From Clitopilus passeckerianus (taxonomy: Eukaryota; Basidiomycota; Agaricomycetes; Agaricales; Entolomataceae), in the NCBI GenBank assembly GCA_944990035.1, contig CALYLX010000002.1, positions 1-64,000 on the forward strand: a stretch of DNA of 64,000 nucleotides. Reading direction: 5' to 3'. Below the pieces are notes generated by a model. That model did not search any database. It was not told the origin of the DNA and worked only from the letters and a program-made list of their open reading frames with translations. Positions 35,595-64,000 of this stretch are shown in pieces. The translations under genes and the position numbers were made by a program. Numbering within the stretch: position 1 is the first letter of the stretch; each line of letters opens with the position of its first letter.

Positions 35595-37665
35595 ATGAGT
35601 TACCGACAACTGGATGTGTGCTCGCAGGAAGAGCTCTTCCAGAACCTTCGGACTAAACTCCAGGATAACTTTGACGAAATCCAAGTCATCTTGGAGAGGT
35701 GGTGTGGGTTAAGAAACTGCCCTCCCAAGGTATTCAAGCTGGCCTAGTGAGTAGACCTTTCTGATCAGCTCTCGATCATTTTTTGACCATGTCACCCCTA
35801 GTGTCGAGCTGGCCGAGAAGGAAATTCTCAAAGTTGTATCCTCGCTGGACGGGGAGTTTGAGCTCATCAAGAATTTGAACGCTGTAATCCTGCCTGGGTA
35901 CACCGTATCCTGTTACCCTGACGAGGGCTCGAAAGCGAAATATTTCGCTGTATTTTCGGACATGTGGACACGACCTCGGACTGGCCAGATATATACTATG
36001 ACGACAGAGAAGACGGAAGATATCGATACGATGATATACGACCTGTACGATCTACAGGCAGACCTGGGGTCGGCCTTCACAGAAGACGACGAGTGGCTCC
36101 AAGTCGTCCAGAGGAGTCAGAAGGAGGGCTGGTCCAGGTGTTTATTGGACCTTTTGACCTGGGTAAGGTGTCGGTCTTTCCAGATGTTGCCGTTACTTAA
36201 CTTAATGGAATCTCTAGCATATCGAAGTCAAGAGCCCAAACTATGACGCCCGGTTGTTGAACCTGCGCATACAAGTCGAAATGGTCAAGGACATGGGTGT
36301 GCTTCCTTTCAGTTTGGATTCAAAAGGCCTCGTCGAAGAACCCGGCGCAGATGAAGACTTCGTGGTATGCTTTGACTAGTGTTTAGTTTGGCTATAGCCT
36401 CATTCCAAGTCTCAAGGGTACCCGCAACGGGAAGCTCGGACAGCTTCCTGTGTGGATCAAATACTTCAAGAAGGTACCTCAGCAGGTCGGAGAGCAAGGG
36501 CAAACGGCACAAGAAAAGGTTCGCCCTCCTCGCAATTATGAGTCTCCCTTGTACTGACATATCAACAGGCACTTGAAGCCGTACTGGAGCATCGCAACCT
36601 CGCCCACCCAAACATCCTGTGCTGGTCTGCTGTTTGCTCTAGCGATCCAGATAAATGGACGTTAGTGAGCCCGAGGATCGAGCAGGACCTCGCTACGATG
36701 ATAAAAACACACAGAGGTGATGGCTTCAAGCTCACAGCAGTAAGGGAAAGTTCTTAGCAATTTCTGCTTCGCAAGGACTGAGTTTCTCTAGATCACGCAT
36801 ATAGCGGTTGGCCTTGACTATCTCCACGTAAAAGAGACGTGGCATGGAGAACTCTCCCTGGTAAGCTTGTTCAACGTGACGTTAGAGGTTCGTTTAATAT
36901 TTTTACGGTGTGTTTAGGCGAATGTACTTGTCTCTGGGACAACCTCAGCCAACAGGCGATTTTTGCTCACAAATTTCGGCTTGACATCCTTTGAGGGGCT
37001 ACCAAATGTCGACTACCAGGATGACGCCGATCGTACCGTTACCAGACCAGGTCGGGTAGTCAAGGATATTGAAGATTTCGCCCGGATTATGTACGATGTA
37101 AGGCTCGTGTGTTCCCTGCCTTGGTATATTCTTACGATCAGCACTTTACAGATATATCCTCGAAAAGTAGCTTTCAACGCCCTCAAACTTACTCACGCTG
37201 ATTGGACGACCTACCGAGAAGACGAGCCCGCGGACCTGGCCCTGTTAGGAACGTTGGAGGCTAGCGACCACTCAGCGGCCTTCAACCTTTCTAGATACGC
37301 ACGATTCATTAACCGACACTTACCTATTGTTAGTGACAAAAGAATTTTTCTGCTTTTACTGAAAATTTATCATATTGTAGCAGGACCCTGAACCTTGCGA
37401 ATCCAAACCCCCTCTTGAACCTGAGCCTCGCCATTCCTTACGACTGCCACCGTCGCTTGATCCGTGTAAAGCTGAAAGGAAGGCCATCATCGTGCAAGCC
37501 AACAACCTAGCTTATAATGTCGACCCGACTTTTTCAAAGAAGTACGAGAAGGTCAAAAATTCCACCCCTGCGCGAGGAAACAAGGGAAACGGGATAGGGG
37601 GGAGAGTAAAGAAACTATTTGGGCTGGGACGACAGCCACGGCTCGAGGTCCGGATAGAGGCATAG
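35595..37665 (+). CDS. PAH-like + pseudokinase family, member A
   Basis: First member of the array family. The N-terminus (MSYRQLDVCSQEELFQNLRT to LIKNLNAVILPGYTVSC) has the helix pattern and LNxxLPxG ending of a Sin3 paired amphipathic helix. The connector domain ends EGWSRCLLDLLTW. The kinase fold follows: VWIKYFKK (beta-3 Lys kept), LAHPNILCW, YLHVKETWHGELSLANVLV, FLLTNFGL. The catalytic Asp is Glu (HGE) and DFG is NFG, so it is probably inactive. The tail is basic, ending GRVKKLFGLGRQ. About nine exons. The third junction needs a 22-nt intron (36365-36386), or the frame is broken there. Its 3' end lies 268 bases before NLR1, on the same strand. Confidence 0.7.
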
Positions 37666-37932
37666 TCAATCTATATCTTTGTGGCTTGCTAAAATACCCG
37701 TCTTCTGCACCCGTGGGAGTCGATCCAAGTATGATTGGCAAGACTAATACCACAGGGCCGCTTCCCATACGTAGATGATTTCGCAAATTGAAACCTGAGA
37801 GTGTGCTGAAAATGGGATATGACCTTGTATAGGAAGGGTGTCATGCCTCTATTTTTGGTCCAAATTCGAACCGTTGGACCCCATCAGATCCCCGATAGCA
37901 CTCGCTCTATCCTCTCTTTCCTATAGACAGCC

Positions 37933-40900
37933 ATGTCACTATTCAGTGGTTGCAATGTCAACATTTACAACAGTCATCTTATCAATACCGAAGGGAACTT
38001 CTACTCCAATCATGTCGACGATACTAACACAGGTTGGCAACGCTATCTCCCTCAGTCAAGTATTTTTTGTTGAATTGACTATATTAGATGAAAGATTGGC
38101 GAGGCGGCTGAAGGCATCCCTAGAAACCCACTTATTGGATTTCATGAATGTCAATGCATGTACCGAAGGCACCAGGGTGCAAGTCCTCCAGGAGATACAA
38201 CATTGGATCAACATCGACTCCCCTGCCAACTCCAACCCACATCAAGCACACTTCACTCGCCCCTTCCAGCCAGACAGCCCTAGCATATTGTGGCTCACTG
38301 GGGCTGCTGGAACTGGGAAAACTGCTATTGCAGCTACCATTGCCCGGTCCTGTAGAGAACGTCGAATTCTCGGCGCGAGCTTCTTTGTATCCCGCTTTGA
38401 TTCCTCTCGGGCGAATCCGAAGTCAATAATTCCTGCCATTGCATGTGGGCTGGCACAGCGGAACCCAATATTCGGAGATAAATTCGTGAAGAAACTTGAA
38501 GATTACTGCGGACCAGGAGGGCTACTGGAACGTGATGCTATATTTCAGATCAATACACTGATCATCACCCCTTTACACGAACACCTCAGTGGTGGCAATG
38601 CCACTGGCAGCTCGGCGATTCACCCCGGGCCCTGCGTCGTCCTCATAGACGCCCTCGACGAGTGCCAACGCGATGACGAGTCTCGGCCAAAGGAGGAAAC
38701 GGTCAAAATCGTCACCGCAATATTGGAGAATATCAAGGACCTCACCCCCGTTCGATTCATTATTACATGCCGCCCAGAGCACAGGTTTCTTGACCTGATG
38801 AGAAAACATAAAGAGGCTATCACATCCTTGGAACTCCATGATAAGCGGTGGATGACAGAAGCAGATATCGAAAGCTACTTCCGTCGAGAGTTCGAAACCA
38901 AGTTGGAATATCTTGGTCCAGATTGGGTATCAGAAGACAATATCATCCGACTCACAAGATATTCCCAGAACCTATTCATTATTGCAAAAACCTGTATGGG
39001 GTATATAACGGACGAAATCGAAGGCAATCCTGAAGATAGGCTCTCAGCGCTTCTGGAACTCATTCAGAATCACGACACATCCTCATTCACCTCGTTCACC
39101 CCAGAATCCTCCCCCGAGCCAACTTCCAGCCTTGACAAACTTTACGAGGTCATTCTCAATCGAACGCCTCCGTATACAGATAGGCGTATGGTATCCATGA
39201 TGAGTGTACTTGGTACGATTGTTCTATGGCAATTACCACTCTGTGCTCGAGCTTTGGATAAGCTCCTCGGATACCACCAGTACGATGGCAGACACAGTCG
39301 GAACGCGCTCGAAGGGTTGCGCTCTGTTGTCACCATACCTGACAATGACGCAGAAGACAACGAAATGAAACTACTTCACCTTTCTTTCGGGGACTACATC
39401 ACCGACTCGACCCGGTGCAATCCTAAATTCTTGGTGGACGTTAGGCGACAACACGAATTTCTTGCCGAGCGCTGCCTGAAGATTTGGGAGACAGAGATGC
39501 ATGGAGAACGCAGGGGAGAGGTAGACCCAACCTTATCCCATTCCGTCACAGTGGAAAAGTCACACATCAGATATGCCGCCCAATTCTGGGGTGACCACCT
39601 TCGTGGTGGATCTCACCCAATTTCACCCAGTATTCACGCCAAACTCCTCCGCCTCTGCTCTTCGGAGTACATCCTTTATTGGATAGAATTCTGCGCTCGC
39701 CGTGGAATCCTTAGATCCGCACTTGCCAGTATCCATTCTGTTGCTCGTTTCATTGAACAGCAGAATAACGCTATGCGAGGGGATGCGGATCTATGTGAGC
39801 GTTTACGGCAAGCAGAGCAATGGATTCGTCAGTACTTCTCGTTATTGGAGGAAGCCCCACAACAAGTCTATCATATCCCCTTCTCCCCTCCCCTCCTTGA
39901 CGTCAAAGAACTCGATAATTCTTCCTCGTGGATCAGGGAGCTGGATTTCCACAGGAACGAAGATTTGTCGAAGATTTGGCAAATCGAAATGGCGTCTACT
40001 GCACGTAGCTGTGTCACCTTCATGCACGGCGACGACGAATTCATATTGGCCGCTACGTCTGGGAGCCTGGAGATATGGGATATGCTCAGCGGAACACAAG
40101 TCGGCGCCTTGAACGGAGAAGAAAAGTTTACATCCGTAGCAGTCAGTGAAGATGGCAAGACTGCAGCCTCGGGCTCCCGAAAGGGCGTCGTGCAGATCTG
40201 GGATCTGACCAGCGGGGTTTGCGAAAGGTTAATGGAAAAACACATCCATCCAGGGCTGATAACTACTGTGGCCTTTTCCCCTGTCACGAAACGGAGGGTC
40301 GTTTCAGGGGATGCAGAAGGGAACCTCGTTGTGTGGGATGTCGAGGGGCGATCAGCTACCAGGAAAACGAATCTCAGACATGAAAGTGAAATCGCTACCA
40401 TATCTTTTTCCGCAGATGGCTGCCTCGTCCTATCTCTGTCGAGATTTGACCAGGTTCTCTGCATATGGGATCCCGATACAGGAAGGGAGCGGATAATTTG
40501 TCATATCCCAGCCAATGTATCCGCTGCGGCCTTCTCGCCTCCGAGAGAAAACAGCAGCAGGACGATGGTGTGCGGAACCTCCGATGGAGTCTTCCGTTTG
40601 TGGAAGGACGGGACTGGTGGACTTCATTGGCTCAGCCAACCATACCCAGATTCATCTATTAACACCCTCTCATTCTCACCAAATGGGTCGCAAATAGTCT
40701 CCCTGATAGATGGTGACCAACAGCCCCTTCGCATCTTGCTATTTGAGCTAGATGGTGGCTCCAGCAGATGTATAGTTTGCCCCGAGTTTGGCATCGAATC
40801 CTTGGTTTTCGCCAGGGATGGCAAACATATTGTGACATCCGATCCACAACAAGGTCGAATCCGTGCCCGTGTCTGGAAACAACACCCGTCATTCGAAGCT

Positions 40901-42025
40901 GAAACCATCGACATTTGCAGCTCACCAGTTGCATGTACTCTGTTTTCGCCCCGGGGTGATATGTTCGCCATAGGCTTCCAGAGCGGGTCCATCATGCTTT
41001 GGAGTCTAATAAATGGCGTGGCCCGAAAACTTCCGGATTTCGAGAACTTGGTTGCAGGCGCCCGCGTGCTGGTTGCTGCCTTTTCGGCGGGTGGCACGAT
41101 GCTGGGCATTGGTCTCGAAGTGACCAACGCCGACAAGACACATTCCCCTCCAGCAAAGGCGGGTGCCATCTATCTTTCTAATGTTGTGAATCATTCCCAA
41201 GTTGACACAAAATTGCGGATCCTGTGGCGTTCTCGAGCTGTGGATAAGCTCGTGTTTTGTCCTATCAACGAGCATGTAATCGCCTGTTCCTCTGCAGACT
41301 CATCAGAAGTCGAGATTTGGGATCTTGGAAAAGAAGCCGTAACCAGTACGCTGCACGGGACCCACAATCCAGTCAATGCTTTGAACGACCTCATTTTTTC
41401 TCCGGATGGGACCAAGATAGCGACCGCCTGCCGGGATAATGTGATCGCGATATGGGACATCACCTCGGGAGCGTGTTTAGGGACCTTGGGGTTCAACAGA
41501 GGTCGGGCGGAGTCCATCTCCTTCACATCGGATGGGCGAGGGTTCATAGCCATGACAGTCAGTCGGGCTGTTGGGTTATTCGATATGAAGTGTTCTCTCG
41601 TCAAATTGGTCCCAGGCGGTGCTGTGGTGACTCAGAGGGGCATAGAGCCAACTGGGAGGTTAGTAGACCTTGTGGCGACCCTCGACAGATTTTGTGGTTT
41701 CAACTTGGTGGGAATGGGTTCAGCTCGGCGTGGGGACTTCTCGAGATACAATAGCGGAAAGCTCACTTCTTTCCTGGCCAACCTTGATAGAAGTTCACGT
41801 AGGCCAGGTGAAAAACCGGAGATGATAACTGAGGATGGCTGGTTGTGGTGTCTCGTGCGTAGGCGGCGAATCATGGCTATTCCCAAATCGTTGCGCGTCG
41901 ATCCAGATAGGGGACTGGCACATATGGGAGATTATGTCGTGCTTGCGACTGATAAAGGTCAAATCCATATTTTAGACATATCTAGAATGTTGCAAGAGTT
42001 GGATAGAGTAGATGCCAAGCTTTGA
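37933..42025 (+). CDS. NACHT-WD40 NLR (STAND) receptor, NLR1
   Basis: Intracellular signal-transducing NTPase of about 1345 aa. I start it at the ATG at 37933. Exon 1 (37933-38032) encodes MSLFSGCNVNIYNSHLINTE and a few more residues, and an intron (38033-38087) joins it in phase to exon 2, which is uninterrupted. The segment CTEGTRVQVLQEIQHWI precedes the NACHT domain. Walker A is GAAGTGKT (about residue 105) and Walker B is VVLIDALDEC (about 217). A helical middle region (RYAAQFWGDHL, QVYHIPFSPPLL) leads to a WD40-type beta-propeller region from about residue 680. Blade ends include LEIWDM, VQIWDL, LVVWDV, VEIWDL and IAIWDI. The C-terminal block DGWLWCLVRRRRIM is shared with NLR2. The propeller would sense a ligand and NTP binding would drive oligomerisation. 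No break was seen. Confidence 0.85.
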
Positions 42026-42464: not shown

Positions 42465-44810
42465 ATGAACTCTCAAAATCTGCCACCTTGCTACATTCGG
42501 CAGCGAGACTTGCCTGCGGCTCAAACTTACATGCTCAGACTACGAGACAAGCATTTCACTCAGAATCCAACCCGATACGCCACAGTTGTTAAATGGATCG
42601 AAGCTTGGATTCAGTTAGGGGATGACGCTCAATGGTACTAAACCTTAATCTCAACCATTCGAACGTGGCTGACATTCAAATCTAGGGACGATGCTATCTA
42701 TGAGAAGCTGAAGGCTCAACTACTTCAAATCGTGGTTTGGCTTAATCATGATGCTGCTCTCATCAGGGAATTGAATGCGATACTACCACCCGGAATTTCA
42801 GTGTTTTGTTCGCCTGTGAGCAAAGCCGTCGATGCCAGATCAAAATCTGCTCCTCTGCTTCAGGAAACCTATTTGGGCTGGCGGCTGCTCGAGTCGGCTC
42901 ACGCTGACCGACCCCTTCTTCTCGATGAATCTAATATCCATCCAACCGCTGAAGAAGCCGAGAGGCTCAAAGACCCGGGGGTGCGATATGTCACACTGGT
43001 CACTCGCAAATCTGGTGAAATACTCCCAACGATACCTCACTACAAGACTGGGCGCTACCACACCATTTTTGCTCTGGACGATCTCATATGTGCTATGCCC
43101 GTGGACGATAGCTGGGAAGTTGTTGAAGATTTTGCCCAGCGCCACGGCTGGGACCACTGTCTCATGGACTTACTGACACAGGTAAGTCGAATCGCTTCAA
43201 CCATGGAGGTTCCTCATAGGTGAATTTTAGCAAACCAACGATCATTCTTTGAACCCGTACTATGGCAGAATGGCGTTTCGAAGACAAGCCCAAGCGGCGA
43301 AGAAGTATGAAGCGTTGCCTTCTAGCCTTTACCTCCACAATGTGACGAAAACGTTGGAGCCACAAGTCAATAAGCCATCCGATGACCTACGATCTTTCGG
43401 AGTGAGCCAGGAATTGTCTTTGTTTGCCATTCGCCATTCTCATTCTTGAGGGTATCCTTAGACAATTTGGAAGGGAAACCTAGCAGATCAGTCCGTTTGT
43501 TTCAAAGTTGTTAGCATCGTCGCCAAACCGGGCAAGTCGCTGGAGGAGAACATACGTGCCCAAACTTGTTTGAAGGTAGGAATCTCGTGCTGCTGAGATT
43601 GTCCGTGCTTAGCATACTTCAGGCGCTCCTTCGTGAAGTCCTTTCATGGCATCGACTTGATCATGTCAATGTACTCCCCTTCTTGGGGGTGAATTGCTCC
43701 GAGTTCGGTTCTTGGGCATTACTTGTACCATGGAGGAGGAAACGGGATCTTCTTACCTATCTACAACGACGGGGCTCTACAGATGATTTAACAGTGTTCA
43801 AACAACGAGCAGTGAGCAGACCTTTATACACCTAACCTCTTGTCTATTGCTGACTTTTCTAACAGGTGTATGACGTTGCACAAGGTCTGGCTTATTTACA
43901 CAACCATGATCCCCCGATCTATCATGGCGACCTTCAAGCAGTAAGTCCTACCTCTGTTTTGTGTATCATCCACAAATTTTCTAACTACTCTTGGCGCTGG
44001 TAGTCCCATGTCCTGATCACGGACGATCTCCGGTGCCAGCTGTTCAATTTTGGTCTGTCATCACTTCCGGAAAGATACAGAGTACAGAGTAGGTCGGAGG
44101 CAGATCAATCGACCAGATGGCGACCACTTGAATATCTTCGGGTGGGTCCGGAAGCTGGGCGGATTAAACCTGCGATCGATATCTATGCATTTGGATGTGT
44201 CATTGCAGAGGTATGTCTATGTTTCAGTGCTCGCCACTACTACACAAACTGACGAGGATTAAGATATATACCGGAGATGTCCCCTGGGGCACGACAACAC
44301 CCGTCGACGACGTCCTTGCCAAGCTCATAGCTGGATCCATACCGGGATTTGGTACATCTTCGATTAAATCTCGAAGGACCGTACCGCCCGCAGTTCTCAA
44401 GGACTTCGCAGCCGAATGTTGGCTTAAAGAACCTTCAAAACGCCCTCAGATAACGGAGCTCGATATTCCGGTCAAGTACCGGAACCCCGAACCTCCCCAC
44501 CAGAAATCAACTTATACCACCGATTTCGTCGAATGGTTAGGCAACGAACGACGAACTCTCGAAGCTGATCCACATGGTTGCGATGGTATCTTAATGGTTC
44601 GCCACTTTGCATCTTGATCTTGGGCTGCGCCTCAAGCTTACTACTCTTGCACAGGCTGATACGATGGTTTTACCCAAAATCGATCAGGAACCTTCTCCTG
44701 CTTTAGAAGCAGTGTCTGGCCGCATGTCGAGGCCCACAAAACCAAAGCACGCGTCAAGGCTTCAATTAATACTTGATCACATGTACGAGAAGAGAGATTG
44801 GGACTACTAG
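42465..44810 (+). CDS. PAH-like + pseudokinase family, member B
   Basis: The ATG at 42465 opens the PAH-like helices (AAQTYMLRLRDKHF ... LQIVVWLNHDAALIRELNAI, then LPPGISVF). The connector is longer than in its relatives, and ends GWDHCLMDLLTQ. Kinase fold: TIWKGNLADQSVCFKVV (glycine-poor loop but beta-3 Lys present), LDHVNVLPFLGV, VYDVAQGLAYLHNHDPP, YHGDLQASHVLI, LFNFGLSSL. The catalytic Asp is kept, while DFG is NFG and the Asn after the catalytic loop is His. APE reads PLE. The final exon (ADTMVLPKI to EKRDWDY) is reached through an intron at about 44597-44654 and aligns with the tails of D-F. About nine exons. Confidence 0.68.
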
Positions 44811-45549: not shown

Positions 45550-47631
45550 ATGGGCTACCAACCACCCGCATTTATCCAGCGAAGTCCCAGCGACGTTTTC
45601 CTAGCCTTGAAGAGCCTATGCCCTTCAAAGGAATTCAAGGATATTTTTGATCGTTGGCAAGATCTTCGTAATAATCCCCCTCAATCATTCAGTCGCGGCG
45701 AGTGAGTAGCTGAGGATGACACTATTCACATAGTCTTTTTTACTGATTCATACATTGTAGCATCAACAGAGTGAAGTCTGAGGTTATCAAATTTGTCCAC
45801 TCGCTCCAAGAGAATTTCGGTCTAATCCACGAGCTTAACTCGATACTGCCCCCAACTTTCACACTGTCCTGCCACCCCGAGGTCAAGGATGGTACCCGAA
45901 CGAAATACTTTGTATTGCTCTCGGACTCGTTTCGCCTGTGGGGTGAGATCTACTCGACCAAACCAGAACCAATCGAGGGCCTTGAGCCCGTCTGGACCTC
46001 AGACGACATCAACAGGATCGTCGGAAGAGAAGCTTGGCGCCAGACTGGAGTCGAAGCCAGCCAACGTGACGGTTGGCTGCCGTGTCTACTGGATTTATTG
46101 AGTTGGGTAAGGCGTGCGCATCCAAACAATATTTATCATGTTTACCCATTTCTTTCTCCAGGAACTCGAGTATCCCTGGCTTGATATTGGCTTCCGACAG
46201 CTATTGACGCGCACCCAAGCGGATCTGGTCAAAGTTGCTAAACAACTCCCATTCACTTGTCACTGGAATTATAAAGATTTGGAAGTGAAAACTTCCTTCG
46301 TGACAAACGGCCCAGCTCCAGTATGTATTCGTTGTGGTGTTGATGAACCTCTCAAGGTCAATGCTGATAGCCCATTCTTAGAAATGTCACGAGGGGTCCC
46401 TCCGAGGGCAAGGCGTATGGGTGCAATACTTTGAATCAAATGGGAGTGCCGGAAAGTTTGAGGAGAAGGTACGAATTTACGTTATGGCCTAAACAGGTCG
46501 GAACTTATGAGAACTGGCAGGTTATTGAGAGCGCTCTTGCATGCTGTAACATTCAACACCCCAATCTCGTTTCTTGGACGAGCCTATATTCTCCGGATAA
46601 TGAGAAATGGGTCCTGGTCACTCCCAGAGGTGGAGTCTCTAGTATGCAAGAGTTCTACAAAGGATCACGGAAAGAGAATGACCGTTTCAAACTGGATGTT
46701 GTAAGTTACTCCCATGGGTCTTTTCGCTGCTAATGTCTGAGGATCTATACAGGTCAAAAATATAGCTGAGGCTTTGTACTATCTCAATTGCATCGAGAGA
46801 TGGCGGGGAAGTTTTACGATGGTATCGTACCCATTTTTGTACGACCGCGTCTTGTCTCCTGACTTCCGTCTTCCATAGGCAGATGTGTTTATCGATTACA
46901 ACGGGCACTACCAAATCTCACATTATTGGGATAGTTTAATGCCTGAGGAGCGCCAACCAATCACCACTTATGTTGTCAAACACCCCAAAAGGTTCGAGCG
47001 GATGCAGCCGGATGCGGAAGCACTGGGAAGAATTGTTCATCAGGTGGGCTGGGAGAAACCTTTTTAGTAACTCAATATGCTCATCCATTGGTGGCGGGTC
47101 CAACTCAGATGTACCCTTCCGATTTACCATTGGAACACAGGCTACCAAGTTGTGACCCGGACCTAGACCCAAGTCCGTTGAGCAACCCTGGAAGCCCTTG
47201 TAATTCTGTAGAGGATCTAGTTCGTTGGCTTCTCCTTCTTGCAAGAGGATATCCTGGGTGGATCAAGGAGGACCTTCGCCGAGTTAGTTCGTTGATCGAC
47301 GGGGTAACACCTAATATTGAATTGGTATGTTTCGTGAAGTTTGGTTCGTCATCCTGTGTTGACTCGTCACTGCCTCCAGCGTGAACCCAAGCGTGAACCC
47401 AGTGAAGATTCGGACTCGGACTCGTCGACCCTTGTCCTCAGCTCTCCGGTATCTGAGGATGTAGACAGTGGCAATGCAGGTTTTCCTGCCAAGGAGGGAC
47501 TGCTCAACAACATTTTCAAGAGGGCGAAGCCTAAGCAACTGGTTCAATACGAACAGGAGAGCAAGAAGAAATACGGGTTTGGCTTCCCTTGGTCACGGAA
47601 GGGGAACAAAGGTGCTATCACGGTCAAATGA
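45550..47631 (+). CDS. PAH-like + strongly degenerate pseudokinase, member C
   Basis: The ATG at 45550 gives MGYQPPAFIQRSPSDVFLAL. The PAH-like part ends GLIHELNSILPPTFTLSC, and the connector ends DGWLPCLLDLLSW. The kinase fold is the most eroded of the family. The beta-3 Lys is Gln (VWVQYFES), the HRD region reads RWRGSFTMADVFI with no catalytic Asp, and the DFG region reads ISHYWDS. Kinase landmarks remain (IQHPNLVSWTSLYS, AEALYYLNCIE), so the fold is probably kept for binding. The intron at 46321-46381 matches the position of A's 22-nt gap. The tail is acidic then basic (NNIFKRAKPKQ ... KKKYGFGFPWSRKGNK), like A. A and C form one subfamily. Confidence 0.65.
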
Positions 47632-53649: not shown

Positions 53650-54811
53650 TGTCGCGGGCGATCCACATCGTTGCGGATTCTCTGGCGGTCCCCGAGGTTC
53701 ACTCTCTATTAGTAGGTTTCGAGAATTTGATCTGCGTCCAGAACGTGGCATACCATGCCCGATCGTTCTCCTATTAGGGTAGATATAAAGTGTCTTCGTA
53801 TTAAACGTATCTCTAGTTGCAACTCCCATTATCTGATGCCTGTCCCATGTTGTAACTGCCTCGAGCATCGTGTGTGCTTGACTTAATCCAGTCAGATGTT
53901 CAGGTATTTTCCATGTCTCCTGAAATTATCTGTCTCTTCATTTGCAAATAGTTTCCCACAATGCTCTCTATGTGGGCCCGCGGTGCTCCCGGCCTCATAC
54001 TGTGCCGCTTTGTCTTCGTATCCTCTGATATTCCATCTGCCGTCTTTAAATTCGTCGTTTTTTGGGAGACACAACAGCCCTTGCATAATTTTCCACAGTC
54101 ACATTCATATCTGCGGTATGTATCGAATGGCTTTGGACTCAATTGGTATGGCCGTATCAACCCTAGAAGAGGATTCTGATGAGCAAGTTTTAGGCGTCTT
54201 GAGCTGTCTACTTCGGCTGACTTTCGTACGTAGGTGTCCCGGTCTGCAGGTATTGTGGCCCTTGCTATCCCCACGGAGTCATGCGGGTTGAAGAGTATTC
54301 TGACATTCAGGATCCTTGAACACCTTTCAGTAGCCAAATGTCACTTCTGTATGACATTGGGCTTTTGTCCTTGCGTATCGGGCTGCCGCGGTGCGAAGGT
54401 GCCGCTACGTACATTTTTAATAATAACAACGACGCAGTGCCTCTTGTATTGCTTATGTAACAGTGCTCTTCATGGAAGAACAATTACATCCTTGAGAAAT
54501 CACATTTCTTAACGACGAACGCCTACACTAAAGTCACGCTCAGGCATGCATTACCCCGGAGGAAACAAACGATCGATTTACTTTTGTTCTCTTGTCGTGC
54601 ACACGTCATGAAACGCCTTTTCTACTTACTCTTGTTCTCTTGTCGTGCTCATGTCATGAAACACATTTTTCTTTGAGCCCTTTGGATAACAATGGACTAG
54701 TTATGACCTTCTTAAGTCGCGTCCACACAGAGAGTTTTGTTCACTTTCTTCGTGCTGCCTGTTTCATCCCTGAACCCAAGCCCTTCCACACTCCCAAGAA
54801 GGAGAATAGCA
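53650..54811. other. spacer between candidate membrane gene and pseudokinase D
   Basis: About 1.2 kb of overlapping short frames on both strands, none with recognisable domains. It includes an imperfect direct repeat at 54584-54664. The right end must contain the promoter of D. Confidence 0.4.
54584..54664. repeat. imperfect tandem repeat, 48-base period
   Basis: Two copies of TTGTTCTCTTGTCGTGC, each followed by a (A/T)CA(C/T)GTCATGAAAC stretch, start at about 54584 and 54632. It lies about 150-230 bases upstream of pseudokinase D and could be a chance duplication or an upstream regulatory repeat. Confidence 0.6.
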
Positions 54812-56962
54812 ATGATGGCATGGGATTACCGTCAAAACGACCTGCCTACTGCCGTCGACTACCTTGATAAACTGCGAAGCAAGCTCGACGACGACCGGTA
54901 CTTCACTGTTCTCAAGCGCGCTGAAGCCTGGTCGAAGCAGAACCCTCATTCGTAAATTCATTCCTCACGTTGTTATACATACTTCCATGTCACTAAGTCC
55001 TTTGTTAGTAGCAATAGCGATATTCAACTGAAGGAACAGATAATGCAAATTGTTGCCTGGTTGGGGAAAGACTATAAATCAATCAGAGAGCTGAATTGTA
55101 TCTTTCCTCGTGGAATTGCGTTGCTGAGCCCACCAAGATCCGGGGACACTTCAAGCACATACTATGGTACTCTGCTCACGAAACAAGGAGGAGAGATCCT
55201 ATCACTCGAGCAGTCCCAAGACACTGGTGGCTTCCATGTTATCTTCACGTCGGATGACCTGTTGAGCGCTCAAGGAAACGAAACCGAATGGCCTCATTGT
55301 GTTGATGCCAGCCTTAAGGAAGGCTGGGGACCTTGTTTGGCTGATCTTCTATCGAGGGTATGAGTTATGCCATGGCAATCTGACGGACTATTATAACTTT
55401 GATTGTTAGGAGGTTGATGACCCCTCAAACGCCAAAACAATCCAGCACTTAGCATTTCGAAGACAAATTGATCTGCTCAAGAACCGTGATTGCTTTCCGT
55501 CGCACCTACTCCTACAGCAAGTTTTTAAAACTAGGAAGAACGCAGAAAGACTGTTCCTGTTGACTAGCTTTGCGGTGAGGCATGAGTCTTTCACACCGTC
55601 TGTCTTCCTCTTATACATATTATCAAGGAACGCTATCGGGGCAAGATAGGGGAAGAGCACGCTGAAGGCCGTGCTGTATGCTTGAGGGTATTTCAAAGGC
55701 CAACGGGACGTGATTGTGATGCTCAGGCTAATTATTTGTTTAAACGGGTCGGTCAATTATCTCGGCCTCCTTCGTTGCCACTGATTCTAACGTCAATTCC
55801 AGGATGTATTTCGTGAAATCCTACCATGGTGCAGACTGAGGCATCACAACGTACTTCCTTTCCTGGGAGTTAAGAAGATTTCAACGGGCGTGAAGCCAGA
55901 CGGGCTGGGCAGGTGGACCCTAGTTGTTCCATGGATCGAAAGAAAGGACATCCTGACGTACATCCGGGGGGAACAACCGGATCTTCAGTTCAAGAGGAAT
56001 GCAGTACGTATGAGATCTCTACTGGCTTCCAAACTGCCCTAATACCACCCTGGCAAGGTCTGCGACATCATACAGGGATTGGAATACTTGCATGGTCAAA
56101 TACCTCCTATTTTCCACGGTAATCTCAGAGGGGTGCGCATGAACGGTCCACTGACTTCTCCAAACTCGCTGCTTACCTTTGCCCTTAGTCCCATGTTTTA
56201 GTCGACGAAGACGGAACATGCCTACTGACTAACTTTGATACCTATCGACTAACCAGGGACCACGCCGCAAGTGCTACTCAAACCGCAGAGAGTAGTGAAA
56301 AGTGGCAAGCCCCGGAAGTATTCACAGGCGCCAGTCTGGTGACGGATAAAGCTGCCGTGGACGTTTATGCGCTGGGATGTGTCATAGTTGAGGTTGGCTG
56401 TTTCTTTTCTTCCTCCACTCCGAAGGCTGAAATTTACATTCAACATAGATTTACTCCGGCAACATACCGCAGTTCGGGACCGCAGGCCCCAATACCGATA
56501 TCAAAACACTGGTAAAAAACGGCGAGAGGCCTGATAAACCATCTGACATACCGGAGGAGATGGAAACCTTGATGACAAGCTGTTGGGAGAAAGAACCTGC
56601 CAATCGGCCCAAGATGATAGATCTGGCGAATGAATATCAGATAGATAGGGCACTCAGCGAGAAATGGTTATGGAAGCCTCAACCCGCACAGTTATCCGAA
56701 TGGGTGGCCAAAGAAACTCCACCTCTCCTAGCGCGAGGTGCACGGATGCAGGTATGCAAGCATGGTCTAGAAAATATGAAATTGCTTACCAGACAAACAG
56801 GAAGAATTACCGAAAATAATGTATATCAGCGTTGACGATGCGAGCATGTTGTGCACCTATCGACATTCTAAGCCCAGGGAGCCCACTGGATTCCTTCGTG
56901 TGCTCGATGAAGCTTACAAGCAAGCAGAGGCACAGGGTTTATCAGGGGGCCAGCATCTTTAA
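54812..56962 (+). CDS. PAH-like + pseudokinase family, member D
   Basis: Starts MMAWDYRQNDLPTAVDYLDK (ATG at 54812 or 54815). PAH-like helices end SIRELNCIFPRGIALL. The connector contains YYGTLLTKQGGEILSL and ends EGWGPCLADLLSR. A linker (LAFRRQIDLLKNRDCFPSHL) leads to the kinase fold: EGRAVCLRVFQRP (beta-3 Lys is Arg), LRHHNVLPFLGV, VCDIIQGLEYLHG, FHGNLRGSHVLVDEDG (catalytic Asp is Asn), LLTNFDTYRL in place of DFG, EKWQAPEVF and AAVDVYALGCVIVE. The tail EELPKIMYISVDDASM ... GFLRVLDEAYKQAEAQGLS ends at 56962. About ten exons, all junctions in frame. Three catalytic positions are lost, so it is probably not an active kinase. Confidence 0.7.
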
Positions 56963-57503
56963 ACAACTTTGTGTTCGCTCTTCCTTTCCTTCCAGTGGTT
57001 TCAAGCTGTGTTCCATATGATCTCGTTTTGATAATCTGTTCTCGTCTGGAATGGAGAGAGTCTCCCTGTTCTCAATCACAAGTGGCGATGCTGAACGGAC
57101 ATTAAGTGGAGACCAGTTGACAAACCCGCACGTCTGCGATTTACGTGCACACACACGCGAGCCTCACAATAACAAACGCTGTGAAAAGCCGTTGGTACAC
57201 AACCTCTGTCATTGATCACTGTGAACTGAGCCGCCTCGAGGACACTCGTTATTGAAAGAGCCTAGTCTTTGGGTCTATATGACTGGGAATGGAGACGAGA
57301 TCAACACAGGAAGTACCTTGTCCGGGCCAATGCACCCTCCCTGAAGCATAGCTGTATTAGCTGTATTCGAGCCAGGTACCAGTGACTTGTTGGTGTTGGT
57401 GAAGAATGGACCCACTTACCGACCACTTAAGCGGCCTTCACTTCGACGAGTTTATGCATATACTTCGCTGGGTCCAACCGTGCACATATTCTCAAGAACA
57501 ACT
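56963..57503. promoter_or_regulatory. duplicated promoter region of copy E
   Basis: The stretch 57180-57503 is strongly similar to 60896-61216 upstream of copy F, right up to the ATG. Shared blocks include CATAGCTGT(A/T)TTAGCTGTATTCGAGCCAG and CCAACCGTGCACATA. The 3' flank of D (TTTCAAGCTGTGTTCCATA at about 56998) also recurs after F at about 63408. This shows that the repeat unit includes the flanking sequence. Confidence 0.6.
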
Positions 57504-59657
57504 ATGGCATGGAATTACCGCCAGAATGACCCGCCCGCGGACGTAGCCCACCTGAGCAAACTCGGAGAGAACCTCGACGACAACCGCCACTTCACCATCC
57601 TCAGGCGTGCTACCGCCTGGCCAAACCGGGCCCAGAATGCTAGCTAGCTAGTTTATCCTTCATCCTACTACACCTGCGTGTCACAGAGCCTCCCTGCTAG
57701 CGAACCTCAACTGAAAGATCAGATAATGCAAATCATTTCCTGGTTGAAAGATGATCTCGAATCCATCAGAGAGTAAGTTGTATCCTTCCTCAAGGGATTG
57801 CGCTGCTTGTCCCACCGAGATCGTTGGGGAAGAACGCAAACAAGTATTATGGTACGCTACTCACGCAACAAGGAGGAGAGATCCTATCACTCGAGCAGTC
57901 TCCCGACACTGGTGGCTTCCATGTTATCTTTGACTCGGATGATCTCTCGACCGTTCAAGGAAATAACACCGATTGGGCTCATTGCGTCAAGGTCAGTAAG
58001 AAAGAAGGATGGGGAGCATGTTAGACGGATCTTCTGTCAAGGGTATGTATCATTTCATGCTATCCTGTCGGGATTCTTTAATCTCGAAAGCTAGGAGGTT
58101 GACGGGTCTTCTAACCCAAAGCACATGCGGCAATTGGCATTTCGAAGACAAATCGATATGCTCGAAAAGTATGAATACTTTCCGACACATCTACTACTGC
58201 ACGAAGTTACTCGGACTGGTAAGCGCTCGGAAAGAGCGGCTTACGCTCTTACTTTCGCGGTTAGCATGAGTCATTCGCCATGCACCTTTCCCACTAATCC
58301 ATACCGCAGGAACGTTATCGAGGCGAAATGGGGAAAGGTCGTGCTGTATGCTTGAGAATCTTCCAAAAGCCAGTAATGCGTGATAGTAACCCAGCAAAGG
58401 ACAACCAATTCAAGCGGGTAATTCAAACTTCCAGGTTGACTACACCCTTATCTGTTCTTACACCATCCTAGGAGGTCCTTCGTGAAATTCTTCCTTGGTG
58501 CGGACTCAGGCATCGCAATGTGCTCCCCTTCCTGGGGGTGAACAAATTCTCAACTGCAGCCTTGGTCACCCCGAACGAGAAAGGCAGATGGACTATGGTC
58601 GTTCCGTGGATGGAGAGAAAGGACGTCTTGACGTACGTCTCGGAGAAAAACCCAGATCTAAAGTTCAGGAGAAATGCGGTAGGTGTGAAATCGCCTTTTT
58701 TTTTTAACTTTGGAGTCGATCCTGATATCAGTCTGGCAAGGTCTGCGACATCATACAAGGATTGAAGTATTTGCATGAACCAACTCCTCCTATTTTCCAC
58801 GGTGACCTTAGGGCGGTGAGAATCAACATTGCTTCGCTTTCCGAGTGTTTTATCACCATATTCCTAGGGTCATGTTTTAGTTGATGAAGACGGCACATGC
58901 CTCCTGATCAACTTCGATACTTACCGACTGACGAGGGATCATGGCACCAGTTCTTCCCAGGCCCCGTTTACCAGTGAAAGATGGCAAGCTCCCGAGATAC
59001 TCGCAGGAGGTACCAATGCTCTGGCGGATAAGACTGCCGCAGACGTTTATGCACTGGGATGTGTAATGCTGGAGGTCAGCTTTCTTCCTTTAAACCATTC
59101 CGATAGCTGAAAAGTTGCAATGGTCATAGATTTACTCCAGAAAAGTACCCCAGTTCACCGATAAAGACGGCGATATAAAAAAACTAGTAACTGAGAAGGA
59201 CCGTAGGCCTGATGTACCCTCCGGGGTACCAGAGGAAATCTTAGAAACGATGGGCAGCTGTTGGGCGAGGGCACCATCCGATCGGCCTAAGCTAACGGAT
59301 CTCGTGAATGAATACCAGGCGGACCGGTCAAGCCTCTCAGGTGAATCGACTAAAAGCCTGGACCTTTACCAGAGATGGGCTTGGAAGCCTCAACCAGAAC
59401 TATTGTCGACATGGGTGGCAAAAGAAGTTTCGGCCCTTGGACAGAAAGGCGCAAAGGTGGAGGTACGCAAGCAACCGTCTTGTAACCGCGAACAATGCTT
59501 ACGGAGCCAGCAGGAGGACTTGCCAAAAATCATGTATGTCGGCGTTGACGATATGTCATGCAGCTATCATCATTCGGGTCAAAAGCCCAGGAGGCCAGCA
59601 GGATTCCTCCGAGTTCTTGATGAAGCTTATAAGCAAGCGGAAGCTGAGGGCTTATGA
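57504..59657 (+). pseudogene. PAH-like + pseudokinase family, member E, broken
   Basis: The start MAWNYRQNDPPADVAHLSKL is nearly identical to F, and most later exons are clean. Three lesions distinguish it. The first intron's donor is altered: F has CCGGTAAGT and E has CTAGTTTAT. One base is missing after codon GAG at 57771-57773, which puts TAA at 57774-57776. A CTG-to-TAG nonsense change lies at 58022-58024 in the connector. Downstream motifs remain: GKGRAVCLRIFQKP, FHGDLRASHVLVDEDG, LLINFDTYRL, ERWQAPEIL, and the tail to 59657. The spared 3' half suggests recent loss. A truncated protein or a kinase-only product from a later start is possible. Confidence 0.75.
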
Positions 59658-59802
59658 TTCATGATTCATGACGCCTGCTGAGCATTCTAAACGATGGCTT
59701 CACACTTCCTCTCTATTAGATACTTTCACGCTGTGTACATTGTATACCGGTTTATTAATTGTTCTGACTTGACGCCATGCGATGTGTTCTGTGTCCTCCC
59801 TG

Positions 59803-60717
59803 CCATACCAGAGGACATGGAAGCCTTAATGACAAGCTGTTGGAAGAAGAAAACCCTTCCCAGACTGCCCAAGATGATAGATCTGGCTAACGAATATCGG
59901 ATACATGCATCCGCGTTAACGAGGCACCGTTCGTCACTCTACAAAGGCGGCCAATTTGACCTCTATATCAAAACCTCAGAACATGGCGCAAAGAGTCGTG
60001 ATGCTGCGCTACCCGATGTTGGAAGGAGAAGAATGTTAGATTAGGGAGGCGGATGCAGGAACGCGAGAAAGCAGCAATCAAGAACAACGAGGTTAGATGC
60101 CACTCAGTCGAAAAGGGATACTGCGTAAAGGGCTGGTGAGCAGAGTGGGAGGTTACGCGTACGGCTGGAGGCTAGGGTTGTTCATCATTGCCGGCGGAAA
60201 GGGAGCAGGCGACAGAAAGGGAGTCTGGTATCAGGTCTCTTAGGTTTATTGTAGGATTTGGTTGCGAGTGTCTGAGGATGGTAACGGAAAGGGGGTATAC
60301 ATGCGACGTAGGATCCAGTGTGAAGGTTTGTGGCTCGGGATGGGCGCTGGAGGTACATGGGACTGAATGGGGCTCCGATGAGGTATAATTAGCCGGTGGT
60401 TCTGGGATGAATGATGGTATATGAGTGTATGTAGGTGATAGTGTTTGGAATGAATATGGTCTGATACTGGGTACTGTAGGGCGACGGATGAAAGAGAAGG
60501 TTGTGTGTTCTCTACTATGAGGAAAGGGGGGACGGAGTGTGTGTGACGGTAGGCAAGTGGTTTGGATGGTTATGATCGTGTTTGCGGTATTGTGGGCACG
60601 GGTATAATATTGTGGTATCGATCATGGGTTTGGGAGAGTATCAGGCAGGAATATGGTGTAGTGGTGATGGGTATGGGTTTGCGATAGGCGGGGGCGGTGA
60701 AGCTTACAAACAAGCAG
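59803..60717 (+). pseudogene. remnant of another pseudokinase copy, interrupted
   Basis: A fragment reading IPEDMEALMTSCWKKK then PKMIDLANEYRIHAS (about 59803-59910) matches the C-terminal kinase lobe of D (IPEEMETLMTSCWEKE ... MIDLANEYQIDR). Similarity fades through about 60095. A C-poor segment of about 600 bases follows, then GTGAAGCTTACAAACAAGCAG (60697-60717) matches the tail of D and E (LDEAYKQAE). So most of a former gene copy was lost and its last exon is separated from the lobe by inserted or expanded sequence. This adds about 1 kb to the E-F spacing. Confidence 0.6.
60100..60690. other. C-poor, G/T-rich low-complexity stretch
   Basis: The + strand here is dominated by G, T and A with very few C, with many short GGTAT, GTGTG and GGGTATGGG-like runs, unlike flanking DNA. 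It separates two parts of the pseudokinase remnant. No open frame with recognisable content and no terminal repeats were seen. Confidence 0.5.
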
Positions 60718-61216
60718 TCACACCGAGATTCATGAGGACCGCTTGACTTGAGGCCACTGCCATGCAATGTTCGCAAGCAGAAAACGGGCGATGCTGGTCG
60801 GACGTTAGGCGGACAACTCGAAGTCGACTACTCACACACATCTCGTCCGCCCTCATAGCCGACTCAAATGTTCCAACGGTAATCAACAACGACTGGTGTG
60901 AAAAGCCCTCAGGGTACCAGTTGATGCACACCAGTGTGGAATACTGTCCTGCCTCGAGGAGAGTCGTTGTTGAAGGAGCCCAGCCTTTGGGGCTATATGG
61001 CTGGGAATGGAGACGAGACCAACACACCCAAACGGCCTGCTTTGTCCTAGCCAGTGTACCCTCCATGAATCATAGCTGTTTTAGCTGTATTCGAGCCAGA
61101 TGGCGTCTTGTTGGTGAACAATGGACCCTCACCGACTACTTAAGTGGGTGTTCACCTCGAGGGGTTTAAGCATATACTTCGCTCGTCCAACCGTGCACAT
61201 ACTCTGGAGACCAACA
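60718..61216. promoter_or_regulatory. promoter region of pseudokinase F
   Basis: From about 60896 to the ATG at 61217 this repeats the upstream region of copy E, with near-identical length (321 versus 324 bases). Conservation of the promoter together with the gene marks a tandem duplication unit. Confidence 0.55.
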
Positions 61217-63371
61217 ATGGCATGGAATTACCGCCAGAACGACTTACCCACGGAGGTAGCCTACCTGAGAAAACTCCGAGAAAAGCTCGACGACGACCGT
61301 TACTTGACTGTTCTCAGGCGCGTTGCCGCCTGGTCAGACGCGGGCCAGAACGCTTGCCGGTAAGTCCATCCTTCGTATTGGTACGCCTACGTCTCACAGA
61401 GCCTTCTTGCTAGCGAACCTCAACTGAAACACCAGATAATGCAAATTATTTCCTGGTTGAAAGATGATCTCGAATCCATCGGAGAGCTAAATTGTATCCT
61501 TCCTCAAGGGATTGCGCTGCTTGTCCCACCGAGATCAGTGTTGGGGAAGAACGCAAACAAGTATTATGGTACGCTACTCACGCAACAAGGAGGAGAGATC
61601 CTATCACTCGAGCAATCCCCCGACACTGGCGACTTCCATGTTATTTTCAACTCGGATGACCTCTTGACAGTTCGAGGAAATAACACCGATTGGGGCCATT
61701 GCGTCAAAGCCGGTAGGAAAGAAGGATGGGGACTATGTCTGGCGGATCTTCTGTCAAGGGTATGTGCCATGCCATGCCACCCTCTGAAAGGTTCTAACGT
61801 GGGAAGTTAGGAGGTTGACGACCCTTTGAACCCCGAAGACACAAAGCAATTGGCAGTTCGGAGGCAAATCGAGTTGCTTGTAGATCAACAATGGTTTCTG
61901 ACGCATCTACTTCTCCACGATATTACTCGGACCGGGCAGGGCCCAGAAAGGGTCCCTTGTGCCTATACCTTCGCGGTTAGCATACGTCGTTCGCCATATA
62001 CCTTTTCCACTAATCCATACCGCAGGAACGTTACCGAGGCGAGATGGGGAAAGGGTGTGCCGTATGCTTGAATGTCTTCCAAAAGCCGAAAATGCGTGAC
62101 TTCTACCCGGTTAGAGACTACCAATTTTTGCGGGTAATTCAGTTTTCTGCGTCTACTGCGCTCTTTTCTGCCCTTACACCACCTAGTCGGTTTTTCGTGA
62201 AATTCTTTCGTGGTGCAAACTCAGGCATCCCAACGTGCTTCCTTTCCTGGGGTTGAACAAATGCTCAACTTGGCCCTCGTTCTCGAAAGGCAGGTGGACC
62301 ATGATTGTTCCGTGGATAGAGAGAAAGGACATCTTGAAGTACATCTCGGAGAATAAACCAGATCTGACATTCAGGAGAAATGCGGTATGTTGCAATCTCA
62401 TCTGCCTTGTGTAATCGGTCCTGATGTCAGTCCGCCCAGGTTTGCGACATCATACAAGGATTGAAGTATTTGCATGAACGAACTCCTCCTATCTTCCACG
62501 GTGACCTCAGAGCAGTGAGAATAAACGTTACCTCGCTTGCCTAGGTGTTGTAATTACCATGCTCCTAGGCTCAGGTTTTGGTAGATGAAGACGGCACATG
62601 CCTCCTGATCGACTTTGATACTTATCGGATGACCCAGACCTATGTCGTGGGAGCGGGTATGCGTCAACTCGAATATGGCAACGAAAGGTGGCAAGCCCCC
62701 GAAGTGCTTGACAGACAGCTTAATGCGCTGGACGATAGGGCTGCTGCAGACGTTTATTCGCTGGGATGTGTAATGCTAGAGGTCAGCCTTTCTTCCATTA
62801 TGCTATTCTGAAAGCTTCAAAGTTGGAATGACGATAGATTTACTCCGGAAAAAAACCCCAGTTCGCCGATTGGGATATAAGAAGACTCGTAGTCGTGGAA
62901 GGCTGTAGGCCTCAAGTACCCTCTGGTATCCCAGAAGAGATCCTAGAGACGATAGGCAGCTGTTGGGCGAGGGAACCGTCCGATCGGCCCACCTTAACAT
63001 ATCTCGCGGATGAATACGCTGCAAACAGGTCGGATCTCTCAGGTGACTCAACCGTACACCTGGACACTCACCAGAGATGGACATGGAAGTCGCAGCCTGA
63101 TGTTGTAGCAGACTGGGTGGCCCAAGAGGTTTCAGCGCTCGACAAGAGAGGCGAACAGATGCAGGTATGCATGCCACAGTCTTGGGGCCACGAACAATAC
63201 TTACGGGACCAACAGGAGGACCTGCCAAATATTTTGTATATCTGCGTTGACAACATGTCGGGTGCCTATCGTCACTCGAGTAAAAAGCCTCAGAGGCCAG
63301 CTGGATTCCTCCGTGTTCTCGACGAAGCTCGTGATGCCGCCAAGAAACAAGAGCCCATGGTTTTATCGTGA
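61217..63371 (+). CDS. PAH-like + pseudokinase family, member F
   Basis: Intact sister of the broken copy E. The ATG at 61217 gives MAWNYRQNDLPTEVAYLRKL. PAH-like helices end SIGELNCILPQGIALLVPP. The connector has KYYGTLLTQQGGEILSLEQS and ends GWGLCLADLLSR. Kinase fold: GKGCAVCLNVFQKP (beta-3 Lys is Asn), LRHPNVLPFLGL, WTMIVPWIERKDILKYI, VCDIIQGLKYLHE, FHGDLRAAQVLVDEDG (catalytic Asp kept, Asn is Gln), LLIDFDTYRM (DFD rather than DFG), ERWQAPEVL and AADVYSLGCVMLE. The tail EDLPNILYICVDNMS ... FLRVLDEARDAAKKQ ends at 63371. About ten exons, frame intact throughout. Low catalytic potential is likely, as the lysine and DFG glycine are gone. Confidence 0.7.
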
Positions 63372-63880
63372 GGCTGGATGACTTCGCCCTTTCTTTCCTT
63401 TAAATGCTTTCAAGCTGTGTTCCATAGCTTCTGTATCGATGTTTTTTTGATAATTTGTTCTCGGCTTGACGCCACGCAATACAGTATGTTTTTGGTATCT
63501 TTCCGAGTTCGAAGGTTCGAGTGGCGATGTTGTGGCTATGCGGAGGTGGACGAAAGGCGGACTTGGAGACAAACCATCGTCGCACATTTTCAGTGACCGC
63601 AGTCATTTGTTTCCGACTCATACGAACGAAAAATACTGTGAAATGCCTCGTGATGCACACCTTCTGCCATTGATTACTGCGGAAATACTCAGCAGCCTTG
63701 AGGATTCATCGCTCAAGGCTGTACTCGTCCCTGGGACCCACAATACAAAGGACACCTGAGGATGCGCTTTTCCGTCAAGTTGCACTGCCATACGTTCAAC
63801 AGCAGTTATGCATTGCCTAGTCCAACATTGATATAAACCATGTCATTTCCCCTCAAGGGCGCCCACGCACAATCTGAATC
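63372..63880. other. spacer between copies F and G
   Basis: The left part repeats the 3' flank of D (TTTCAAGCTGTGTTCCATA, about 63408-63426). TGTGAAATGCC near 63640 resembles the start of the E/F promoter block, then diverges. A TATAAA at about 63831-63836 lies about 45-50 bases before the ATG of G. Confidence 0.45.
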
Positions 63881-64000
63881 ATGGTCTGGCAACGACGCTT
63901 TGAAGACTACTCCAGCGAAGAGTGCGTCACCTTTAGGCGCTCGCTGCGAAAGACACTGGAGCGCCAAGGGGTGGACTCCAACTCCGTATCCTACGTGGAC
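63881..64000 (+). CDS. PAH-like family member G, partial (cut by window end)
   Basis: An ATG at 63881 opens MVWQRRFEDYSSEECVTFRR, continuing SLRKTLERQGVDSNSV to the window edge. The start is like the MAWNYRQ of D-F. The helix pattern (FRRSLRKTLERQGV) and the position one repeat period (about 2.66 kb) after F identify it as the next member. Whether a kinase fold follows lies beyond the window. Confidence 0.5.
   Translation, partial: MVWQRRFEDYSSEECVTFRRSLRKTLERQGVDSNSVSYVD

What the first reader, a model, noticed from the sequence alone, without database searches (positions are those of the whole stretch)
35595..64000. 28-kb one-strand array of PAH-like pseudokinases interleaved with NACHT-WD40 receptors
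Seven related genes (A-G, plus a remnant) and two NLRs are all on the + strand in the order A, NLR1, B, C, NLR2, candidate membrane gene, D, E(dead), remnant, F, G. The left neighbours are ordinary housekeeping genes on both strands. Co-orientation, copy-number expansion and dead copies are the signature of a fast-evolving recognition locus. In plants, pseudokinases act as decoys or adaptors guarded by NLRs (for example RKS1 and ZED1 with ZAR1). A fungal counterpart with NACHT-WD40 sensors and degenerate kinases would be new to me. Visible: architecture and layout. Inferred: functional link, allorecognition or defence role.
Basis: partly seen in the sequence, partly recalled or inferred. Interest (0 to 1): 0.92.

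Follow-up and report, generated by a model that had tools for sequence, protein, structure and literature searches.

The report
Paired NLR–pseudokinase locus with divergent haplotypes
A fungus, probably a mushroom-forming one, carries a 30-kb run of immune-receptor-like (NLR) genes interleaved with relatives of protein kinases that have mostly lost catalytic residues, and the stretch joining one receptor to its pseudokinases differs far more between two matching contigs (likely the two haplotypes) than its surroundings, so the locus likely recognises non-self.

Summary
The layout is real: A, B, C, D, dead E, a remnant, F, G (one kinase-derived family) and two NACHT-WD40 NLRs lie on one strand at 35.6-65.7 kb. 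New facts: (1) G has intact catalytic motifs. (2) The order reads as a duplicated three-gene module, A-NLR1-B and C-NLR2-D(E,F): A groups with C, NLR1 with NLR2 (B with D/F is weaker). (3) By the queries run, neither the family's N-domain nor this NLR lineage occurs elsewhere in the genome. (4) Contig C116 carries the same locus, likely the other haplotype. Against about 4% background difference, the 3' half of NLR2 and gene D differ by 15-21% (dS about 0.4-0.85, background 0.10); E and most of the 2.5 kb between NLR2 and D are missing, and F is frame-shifted; G and the flanks are ordinary. D and NLR2 stay constrained (dN/dS about 0.25). This fits a balanced recognition locus and ties a receptor to its pseudokinase. 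No interaction or phenotype is shown. 'PAH-like' is unproven (no Pfam match; weak fold resemblance). Other NLRs here are divergent too, so NLR divergence alone is not special.

The parts
35595..37665 (+). Gene A: helical N-domain + degenerate kinase-like region (K by alignment, uncertain/HGE/NFG) + basic C-tail; 548 aa if the weak donor GTCGAA at 36332 is used
   Evidence: junction 3 and the 37106/37152 junction are uncertain
37955..42025 (+). NLR1: NACHT/NPHP3_N-type P-loop NTPase + WD40 propellers; 5' end unresolved
   Evidence: NPHP3_N 68.1 bits, cut-off 24.8; WD40 92.3 bits; NACHT 34.9 bits, cut-off 26.7; 36% identical to NLR2
42465..44810 (+). Gene B: N-domain + pseudokinase (K kept, HGD, NFG), 9 exons, 636 aa
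   Evidence: (PF07714 E 3.1e-25)
45550..47631 (+). Gene C: N-domain + most degenerate kinase region (no HRD, no DFG) + basic C-tail, 541 aa
48073..52178 (+). NLR2: short leader (exons 48073-48078, 48153-48216), NACHT/NPHP3_N NTPase, WD40 propellers, C-terminal extension, 1324 aa; 3' half strongly divergent between contigs
52200..54650 (.). Stretch missing from C116 (which has about 0.3 kb of other sequence there): holds a 1.17-kb segment 84% like C153:526347-527516 and dispersed repeats; the 'membrane gene' candidate lies here
   Evidence: one piece tested without significant Pfam match
54815..56962 (+). Gene D: N-domain + pseudokinase (R/HGN/NFD), 9 exons, 571 aa; 81% identical in exons to its counterpart on C116
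57504..59657 (+). Gene E: dead copy, in-frame stops; absent from C116
59793..59921 (+). Remnant of an exon-8-like piece (C-lobe), 73% identical to D over 33 aa
61217..63371 (+). Gene F: N-domain + pseudokinase (N/HGD/DFD), 9 exons, 576 aa; the C116 counterpart is frame-shifted in exon 8
63881..64000 (+). Gene G, part of its first exon (gene continues to C2:65712): N-domain + intact-looking kinase (LCLK, HRDIKTAN, DFG)
49155..63371 (.). Divergent haplotype block: NLR2 3' part, 52.2-54.65 kb, D, E, F

Best explanation
The locus is a module of an NLR receptor gene flanked by genes of one kinase-derived family that have mostly lost catalytic residues, likely duplicated once as a block, and it likely works as a non-self recognition unit in which each NLR is predicted to watch its neighbouring pseudokinases as baits or adaptors. 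Shown: the gene order, the loss of catalytic residues in A-F (in differing degree), the intact motifs of G, the grouping A with C, NLR1 with NLR2 and (more weakly) B with D/F, the absence of the N-domain and of this NLR lineage elsewhere in this genome by the queries run, and a block from NLR2 to F that differs between two matching contigs far more than its surroundings. Inferred: the contigs are two haplotypes of one dikaryon or diploid; the block is old and kept by balancing selection; G, or something like it, is the active kinase that the pseudokinases mimic; a foreign or mismatched factor binds or modifies a pseudokinase, the NLR WD40 or C-terminal part reads the change, and the NLR oligomerises through its NTPase to start a defence or cell-death response. 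Neither NLR shows a recognised N-terminal effector domain in Pfam (NLR1's 5' end is unresolved), so the output probably runs through a partner, either the pseudokinases or an unlinked executioner.
For: Layout and models. Module duplication: {A,C} against {B,D,F,G} 100/100 (SH-aLRT/bootstrap) full length, 91.4/89 N-domain; {D,F} 100/100; B with D/F 78.6/73 and 92.9/94; A-C 32%, B-D 36%, NLR1-NLR2 36% identical. Privacy: F, G, C and B queries find the N-domain only on C2 and C116 (one chance-level row on C147, E 0.43); the NLR2 query finds full-length matches only at NLR1, NLR2 and their C116 counterparts, next best 155 bits and partial (36 of 409 candidates scored). Divergent block: 63 flank windows of 1 kb differ by 4.3% on average (sd 1.7, maximum 11.4), NLR2's windows at 50 and 51 kb by 14.6 and 20.7%, D's at 55 and 56 kb by 19.6 and 19.7%. 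dS: D 0.568, last ten of 13 NLR2 windows 0.29-0.65, G 0.093; 34 flank ORFs at most 0.216, 14 ORFs at 8 other allelic loci at most 0.331. Constraint: dN/dS D 0.23, NLR2 0.25, B 0.24, C (first 386 codons) 0.27. Copies differ by contig: E absent and F frame-shifted on C116. D and its counterpart are about equally distant from E (70.2 and 70.8% identical) and from F (68.2 and 68.3%), against simple gene conversion. No Pfam effector domain at either NLR N-terminus.
Against: No binding, expression or phenotype data. One genome, two sequences per locus; allele ages and frequencies unknown. Strong divergence or lack of a partner is common among NLR loci here: of 3 further NLRs searched as DNA, one has an 88% partner, one only partial matches, one no full-length match, and one of 4 NLR pairs reaches dS 0.33. 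Both haplotypes (if that is what they are) live in one genome, so a simple lethal mismatch between them is excluded. No array gene has dN/dS above 1 (the last window of B, with few changes, does: dN 0.033, dS 0.024). NLR1, A, B and C show only slightly raised dS (0.12-0.16), so the block covers one module, not both. B keeps the VAIK lysine and HGD.
Confidence: 0.45

Rival explanations
1. Ordinary tandem turnover: an NLR pair and a kinase family happen to share a fast-duplicating region; pseudokinases are decaying duplicates and no functional link exists.
For: E dead, F frame-shifted on C116, remnant present; other NLR loci are divergent in this genome; large NLR repertoire (87 scored NACHT places, both haplotypes counted together).
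Against: A groups with C and NLR1 with NLR2 in the same order, so the mix likely predates the duplication; D, B, C and NLR2 are constrained at dN/dS 0.23-0.27 although catalytic residues are gone from D, B and C; the N-domain and the NLR lineage were found only at this locus.
Confidence: 0.25
2. MLKL-like executioners: the N-terminal helical domain of the pseudokinases is the killing part, held by the pseudokinase and released when the NLR fires.
For: Helical N-domain + pseudokinase architecture; no Pfam effector domain on the NLRs; basic C-tails on A and C. HELL domains joined to kinase/pseudokinase domains are mentioned in PMC12881547 (passages).
Against: The model's best fold matches are harmonin-homology domains rather than HeLo/MLKL bundles, but weakly; the helices are followed by an alpha/beta part.
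Confidence: 0.15
3. The divergent block is introgressed from a related species, or a misassembly, not a balanced polymorphism.
For: Only two sequences; a block with high dS is what introgression also gives.
Against: Divergence rises step by step through NLR2 (window dS 0.04, 0.08, 0.15, then 0.29-0.65) and varies again in F (0.08-0.37); the contigs are collinear over the 94 kb compared, apart from the block and a 2-kb stretch only on C116 at C2:84.4 kb.
Confidence: 0.15

Closest known systems
Pseudo-allelic het loci of ascomycetes (het-B Bh/Bp, PMC10890737; plp-1/sec-9 as told in PMC10197012 and PMC12881547; passages seen)
   Same: Two adjacent unrelated genes with strongly divergent linked haplotypes; in plp-1/sec-9 an NLR watches a partner protein
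   Different: Partner here is a kinase-derived family; likely basidiomycete; duplicated module with several copies; incompatibility not shown and, by direct mismatch, not possible inside one dikaryon (PMC8229728, passages)
Plant NLR-pseudokinase guard/decoy pairs (ZAR1 with ZED1/RKS1; recalled)
   Same: NLR plus degenerate kinases; tandem expansion; decoy logic
   Different: Receptor here is NACHT-WD40, not CC-NB-ARC-LRR; pseudokinases carry a private N-domain; no shared ancestry tested
MLKL and fungal HELL-kinase proteins
   Same: Helical N-domain joined to a pseudokinase
   Different: No HeLo/HELL match in Pfam; best fold matches, weak, are harmonin-homology domains
Agaricomycete kinase-like proteins (e.g. 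P0002, Collybiopsis luxurians; P0001, Marasmius fiardii)
   Same: Kinase part and the linker before it (read by eye)
   Different: P0002 keeps lysine, HGD and DFG; P0001 has two kinase domains with lysine and DFG, HAD in one and HGC in the other; no match to the N-domain was found
Alpha-alpha hub domains (PAH, HHD, RST, TAFH, NCBD; PMC7948954, start of abstract)
   Same: Predicted helical N-domain; two HHD structures rank first and second

Membership tests
Pseudokinase | Kinase relationship by sequence | tested here: met
   PF07714 E 7e-28 (D), 2.8e-26 (F), 3.1e-25 (B); the pieces of A and C that were scanned (N-domains; A 36918-37388) gave no Pfam match, but A and C align with the family
Pseudokinase | Loss of one or more of VAIK-Lys, HRD-Asp, DFG-Asp | tested here: met
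   A HGE/NFG; B NFG only; C none of the three kept; D R/HGN/NFD; F Lys to Asn with HGD kept and DFD
Pseudokinase | Same, for gene G | tested here: not met
   LCLK, HRDIKTANILV, DFGLAS: G is an active-looking kinase
Pseudokinase | No phosphotransfer in an assay | not testable with these tools
   needs protein; some kinases lacking a motif are active (recalled)
NLR (NACHT-WD40) | NACHT-type P-loop NTPase domain | tested here: met
   NPHP3_N 70.2 and 81.3 bits (cut-off 24.8), NACHT 34.9 and 27.7 bits (cut-off 26.7); not among the 87 scored places (of 257 candidates)
NLR (NACHT-WD40) | WD40 repeats after the NTPase | tested here: met
   WD40 92.3 and 161.1 bits (cut-off 27)
NLR (NACHT-WD40) | N-terminal effector domain | tested here: inconclusive
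   none above cut-off; NLR1's 5' end is unresolved
PAH (Sin3) family | Pfam PF02671 match | tested here: not met
   not listed for D, F, B or the N-domains of A and C at E up to 10; 12 genome places found, none at the array
Alpha-alpha hub fold (PAH/HHD) | Structural match of the N-domain | tested here: inconclusive
MLKL / HeLo executioner | Four-helix HeLo/MLKL_NTD domain | tested here: inconclusive
   no Pfam match; no such structure among the rows shown (50 each), which does not exclude it
Pseudo-allelic het locus | Adjacent genes in divergent linked haplotypes | tested here: met
   NLR2 3' half and D, (that the contigs are haplotypes is inferred)
Pseudo-allelic het locus | Trans-species alleles, even frequencies | not testable with these tools
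   no other fungal genome or strain could be searched
Pseudo-allelic het locus | Incompatibility or cell-death phenotype | not testable with these tools
   needs strains

The most novel reading that the evidence does not exclude
This is the first fungal NLR-pseudokinase guard module and a non-self recognition locus of a dikaryotic fungus: an NLR with WD40 sensor and its private pseudokinase baits, derived from an active kinase still present at the end of the array, duplicated as a three-gene unit and held as old, co-inherited receptor-bait haplotypes.
Probability: 0.3. Interest if true: 0.92.

Novelty: new variant of a known kind. Interest (0 to 1): 0.7.

Why it matters
A 2021 review states that the mechanisms of somatic incompatibility in basidiomycetes remain completely unknown (PMC8229728, passages). 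A compact locus in which a receptor and its pseudokinase neighbour carry linked, unusually divergent haplotypes is a concrete candidate that can be knocked out. It would also show the NLR-plus-pseudokinase arrangement, known from plants (recalled), arising independently in fungi. My searches (open-licence papers only) listed no paper whose title or shown start of abstract describes such a module; 211 of the 236 papers and 7 of the 19 were not listed, and I saw passages of only six papers.

Tried and rejected
Rejected: that all array kinases are pseudokinases (G is intact); that gene A is broken (a 55-nt intron with donor GTCGAA keeps the frame in the model; unproven); that the membrane gene belongs to the array (absent from C116); that D's counterpart is a converted E or F copy. 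A first full-length tree used a wrong frame for A and is replaced; its N-domain tree stands. I first took the receptors for NPHP3_N and not NACHT, because one search shows only 25 of 58 and 63 families; one search shows NACHT above its cut-off.

Full report
What was checked. The window is contig C2:1-64000 of an unnamed 64.8-Mb assembly in 160 contigs. The seven best kinase-like relatives of gene D, of 16 found, bear names of mushroom-type fungi (their placement in Agaricomycetes is recalled), so the organism is probably one too; it was not identified.

Anatomy. Hand-built models with short GT-AG introns give B, D and F nine exons each at matching positions. C (541 aa) and A (548 aa, two junctions uncertain) read open to basic C-tails. 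G lies mostly beyond the window (63881-65712). NLR2 has two small leader exons and reads open for 1324 aa; the leader is almost unchanged on the second contig and found nowhere else in the genome. NLR1's 5' end is unresolved. Both receptors match NPHP3_N, NACHT and WD40 models above cut-off, and no N-terminal effector model does. E carries in-frame stops.

How degenerate. In the order VAIK lysine, HRD, DFG: A K (alignment uncertain)/HGE/NFG; B K/HGD/NFG; C Q/none/none; D R/HGN/NFD; F N/HGD/DFD; G K/HRD/DFG. The array thus runs from an intact-looking kinase to a form without any catalytic motif. The kinase parts of B, D and F score against PF07714, and the family profile hits 2640 solved-structure sequences; the 60 shown are led by EGFR, CTR1, TNNI3K, B-Raf and Src.

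A duplicated module. A and C group together against B, D, F and G (100/100 full length; 91.4/89 on the N-domain). D and F group (100/100). B with D/F is weaker (78.6/73; 92.9/94). NLR1 and NLR2, with their C116 counterparts, are each other's only full-length relatives found. The gene order A-NLR1-B then C-NLR2-D therefore reads as one old three-gene block copied once (identities 32%, 36%, 36%), followed by copying of the D type. That the NLR and two kinase-family genes were already together before the duplication is an inference from this.

Private to one locus. Queries with F, G, C and B found the N-domain only on C2 and C116, apart from one chance-level row (E 0.43). Kinase parts hit many ordinary kinases elsewhere. 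Searches go exon by exon and score only the best candidates (for F 76 of 117, for NLR2 36 of 409), so absence is within that sensitivity.

The second contig. C116 is collinear with C2 over the 94 kb compared, apart from the block and a 2-kb stretch only on C116 at C2:84.4 kb. Outside the array 63 windows of 1 kb differ by 4.3% on average. Inside, windows of NLR2 and D reach 14.6-20.7% (z 6.0 to 9.5). C116 lacks most of 52.15-54.68 kb (it has about 0.3 kb there), E and the remnant, and its F copy has a frame-shifting deletion in exon 8. dS per gene: A N-domain 0.119, NLR1 0.147, B 0.162, C 0.148 (first 386 codons), NLR2 0.356, D 0.568, F 0.165, G 0.093; the pooled value of flank ORFs with a ratio under 0.35 is 0.100 (that selection favours real genes; all 34 ORFs range from 0.016 to 0.216). 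dN/dS: G 0.088, D 0.233, NLR2 0.254, F 0.379, in no array gene above 1. The amino-acid difference of NLR2 is greatest in its last 200 codons (dN 0.19-0.20).

Controls and the results against. Eight other allelic pairs, four NLRs and four kinase-like loci, gave 14 ORFs with dS 0.007-0.331; the pairs were picked because a partner was evident, which biases them to similarity. Three NLRs searched as DNA without such a choice gave an 88% partner, partial matches only (86% over 648 bases, otherwise about 71%), and no full-length match. So NLR loci are often divergent here; what stands out at this locus is that the divergence runs on from the receptor into pseudokinase D and stops before G.

Reading. 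Linked, divergent alleles of two adjacent unrelated genes are what pseudo-allelic het loci show (PMC10890737, passages), and narrow footprints of balancing selection are reported for het genes (PMC11138114, passages). A review argues that direct allelic or non-allelic mismatch would kill a basidiomycete heterokaryon (PMC8229728, passages); since both contigs sit in one assembly, this locus cannot be a simple lethal-mismatch system between these two haplotypes. A guard or decoy system against outside factors, whose variants are held by balancing selection, fits better; PMC10197012 (passages) proposes such a route for fungal NLRs.

Verdict.

Noticed in passing
C130, C40, C142, C91, C126: NLR clusters followed by rows of ~126-bp repeats matching one another at roughly 80-96%, as in high-identity WD40-repeat NLRs (that label recalled).
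   Followed up: no
C96:383381 (L001) and C146:41122 (L005): NLR genes for which the DNA search found no full-length partner in this two-haplotype assembly: possible presence/absence polymorphisms.
   Followed up: no
C26:43400-47000 / C123:377400-381000 (L027/L028): Another NLR allele pair with raised dS (0.33 over 450 codons).
   Followed up: no
window 28712-31571: Tandem pair of related genes; two ORFs tested gave no Pfam match; locally raised divergence (10% in the 29-kb window).
   Followed up: partly
window 52726-53893 and C153:526347-527516: 84% identical 1.17-kb segment at two places, with dispersed repeats around it on C2; may be a mobile or captured gene fragment.
   Followed up: partly
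window 48153-48216: NLR2 leader exon (QGDQHIIHNTVNHIYGSSLEP) nearly unchanged between contigs; short N-termini of agaricomycete NLRs are reported to hold amyloid-like motifs (PMC9815663, passages); not tested here.
   Followed up: partly
window 37384-37665 and 47380-47631: Genes A and C end in basic tails (GGRVKKLFGLGRQPRL; NNIFKRAKPK...SRKGNKGA); possible membrane or partner contact.
   Followed up: no
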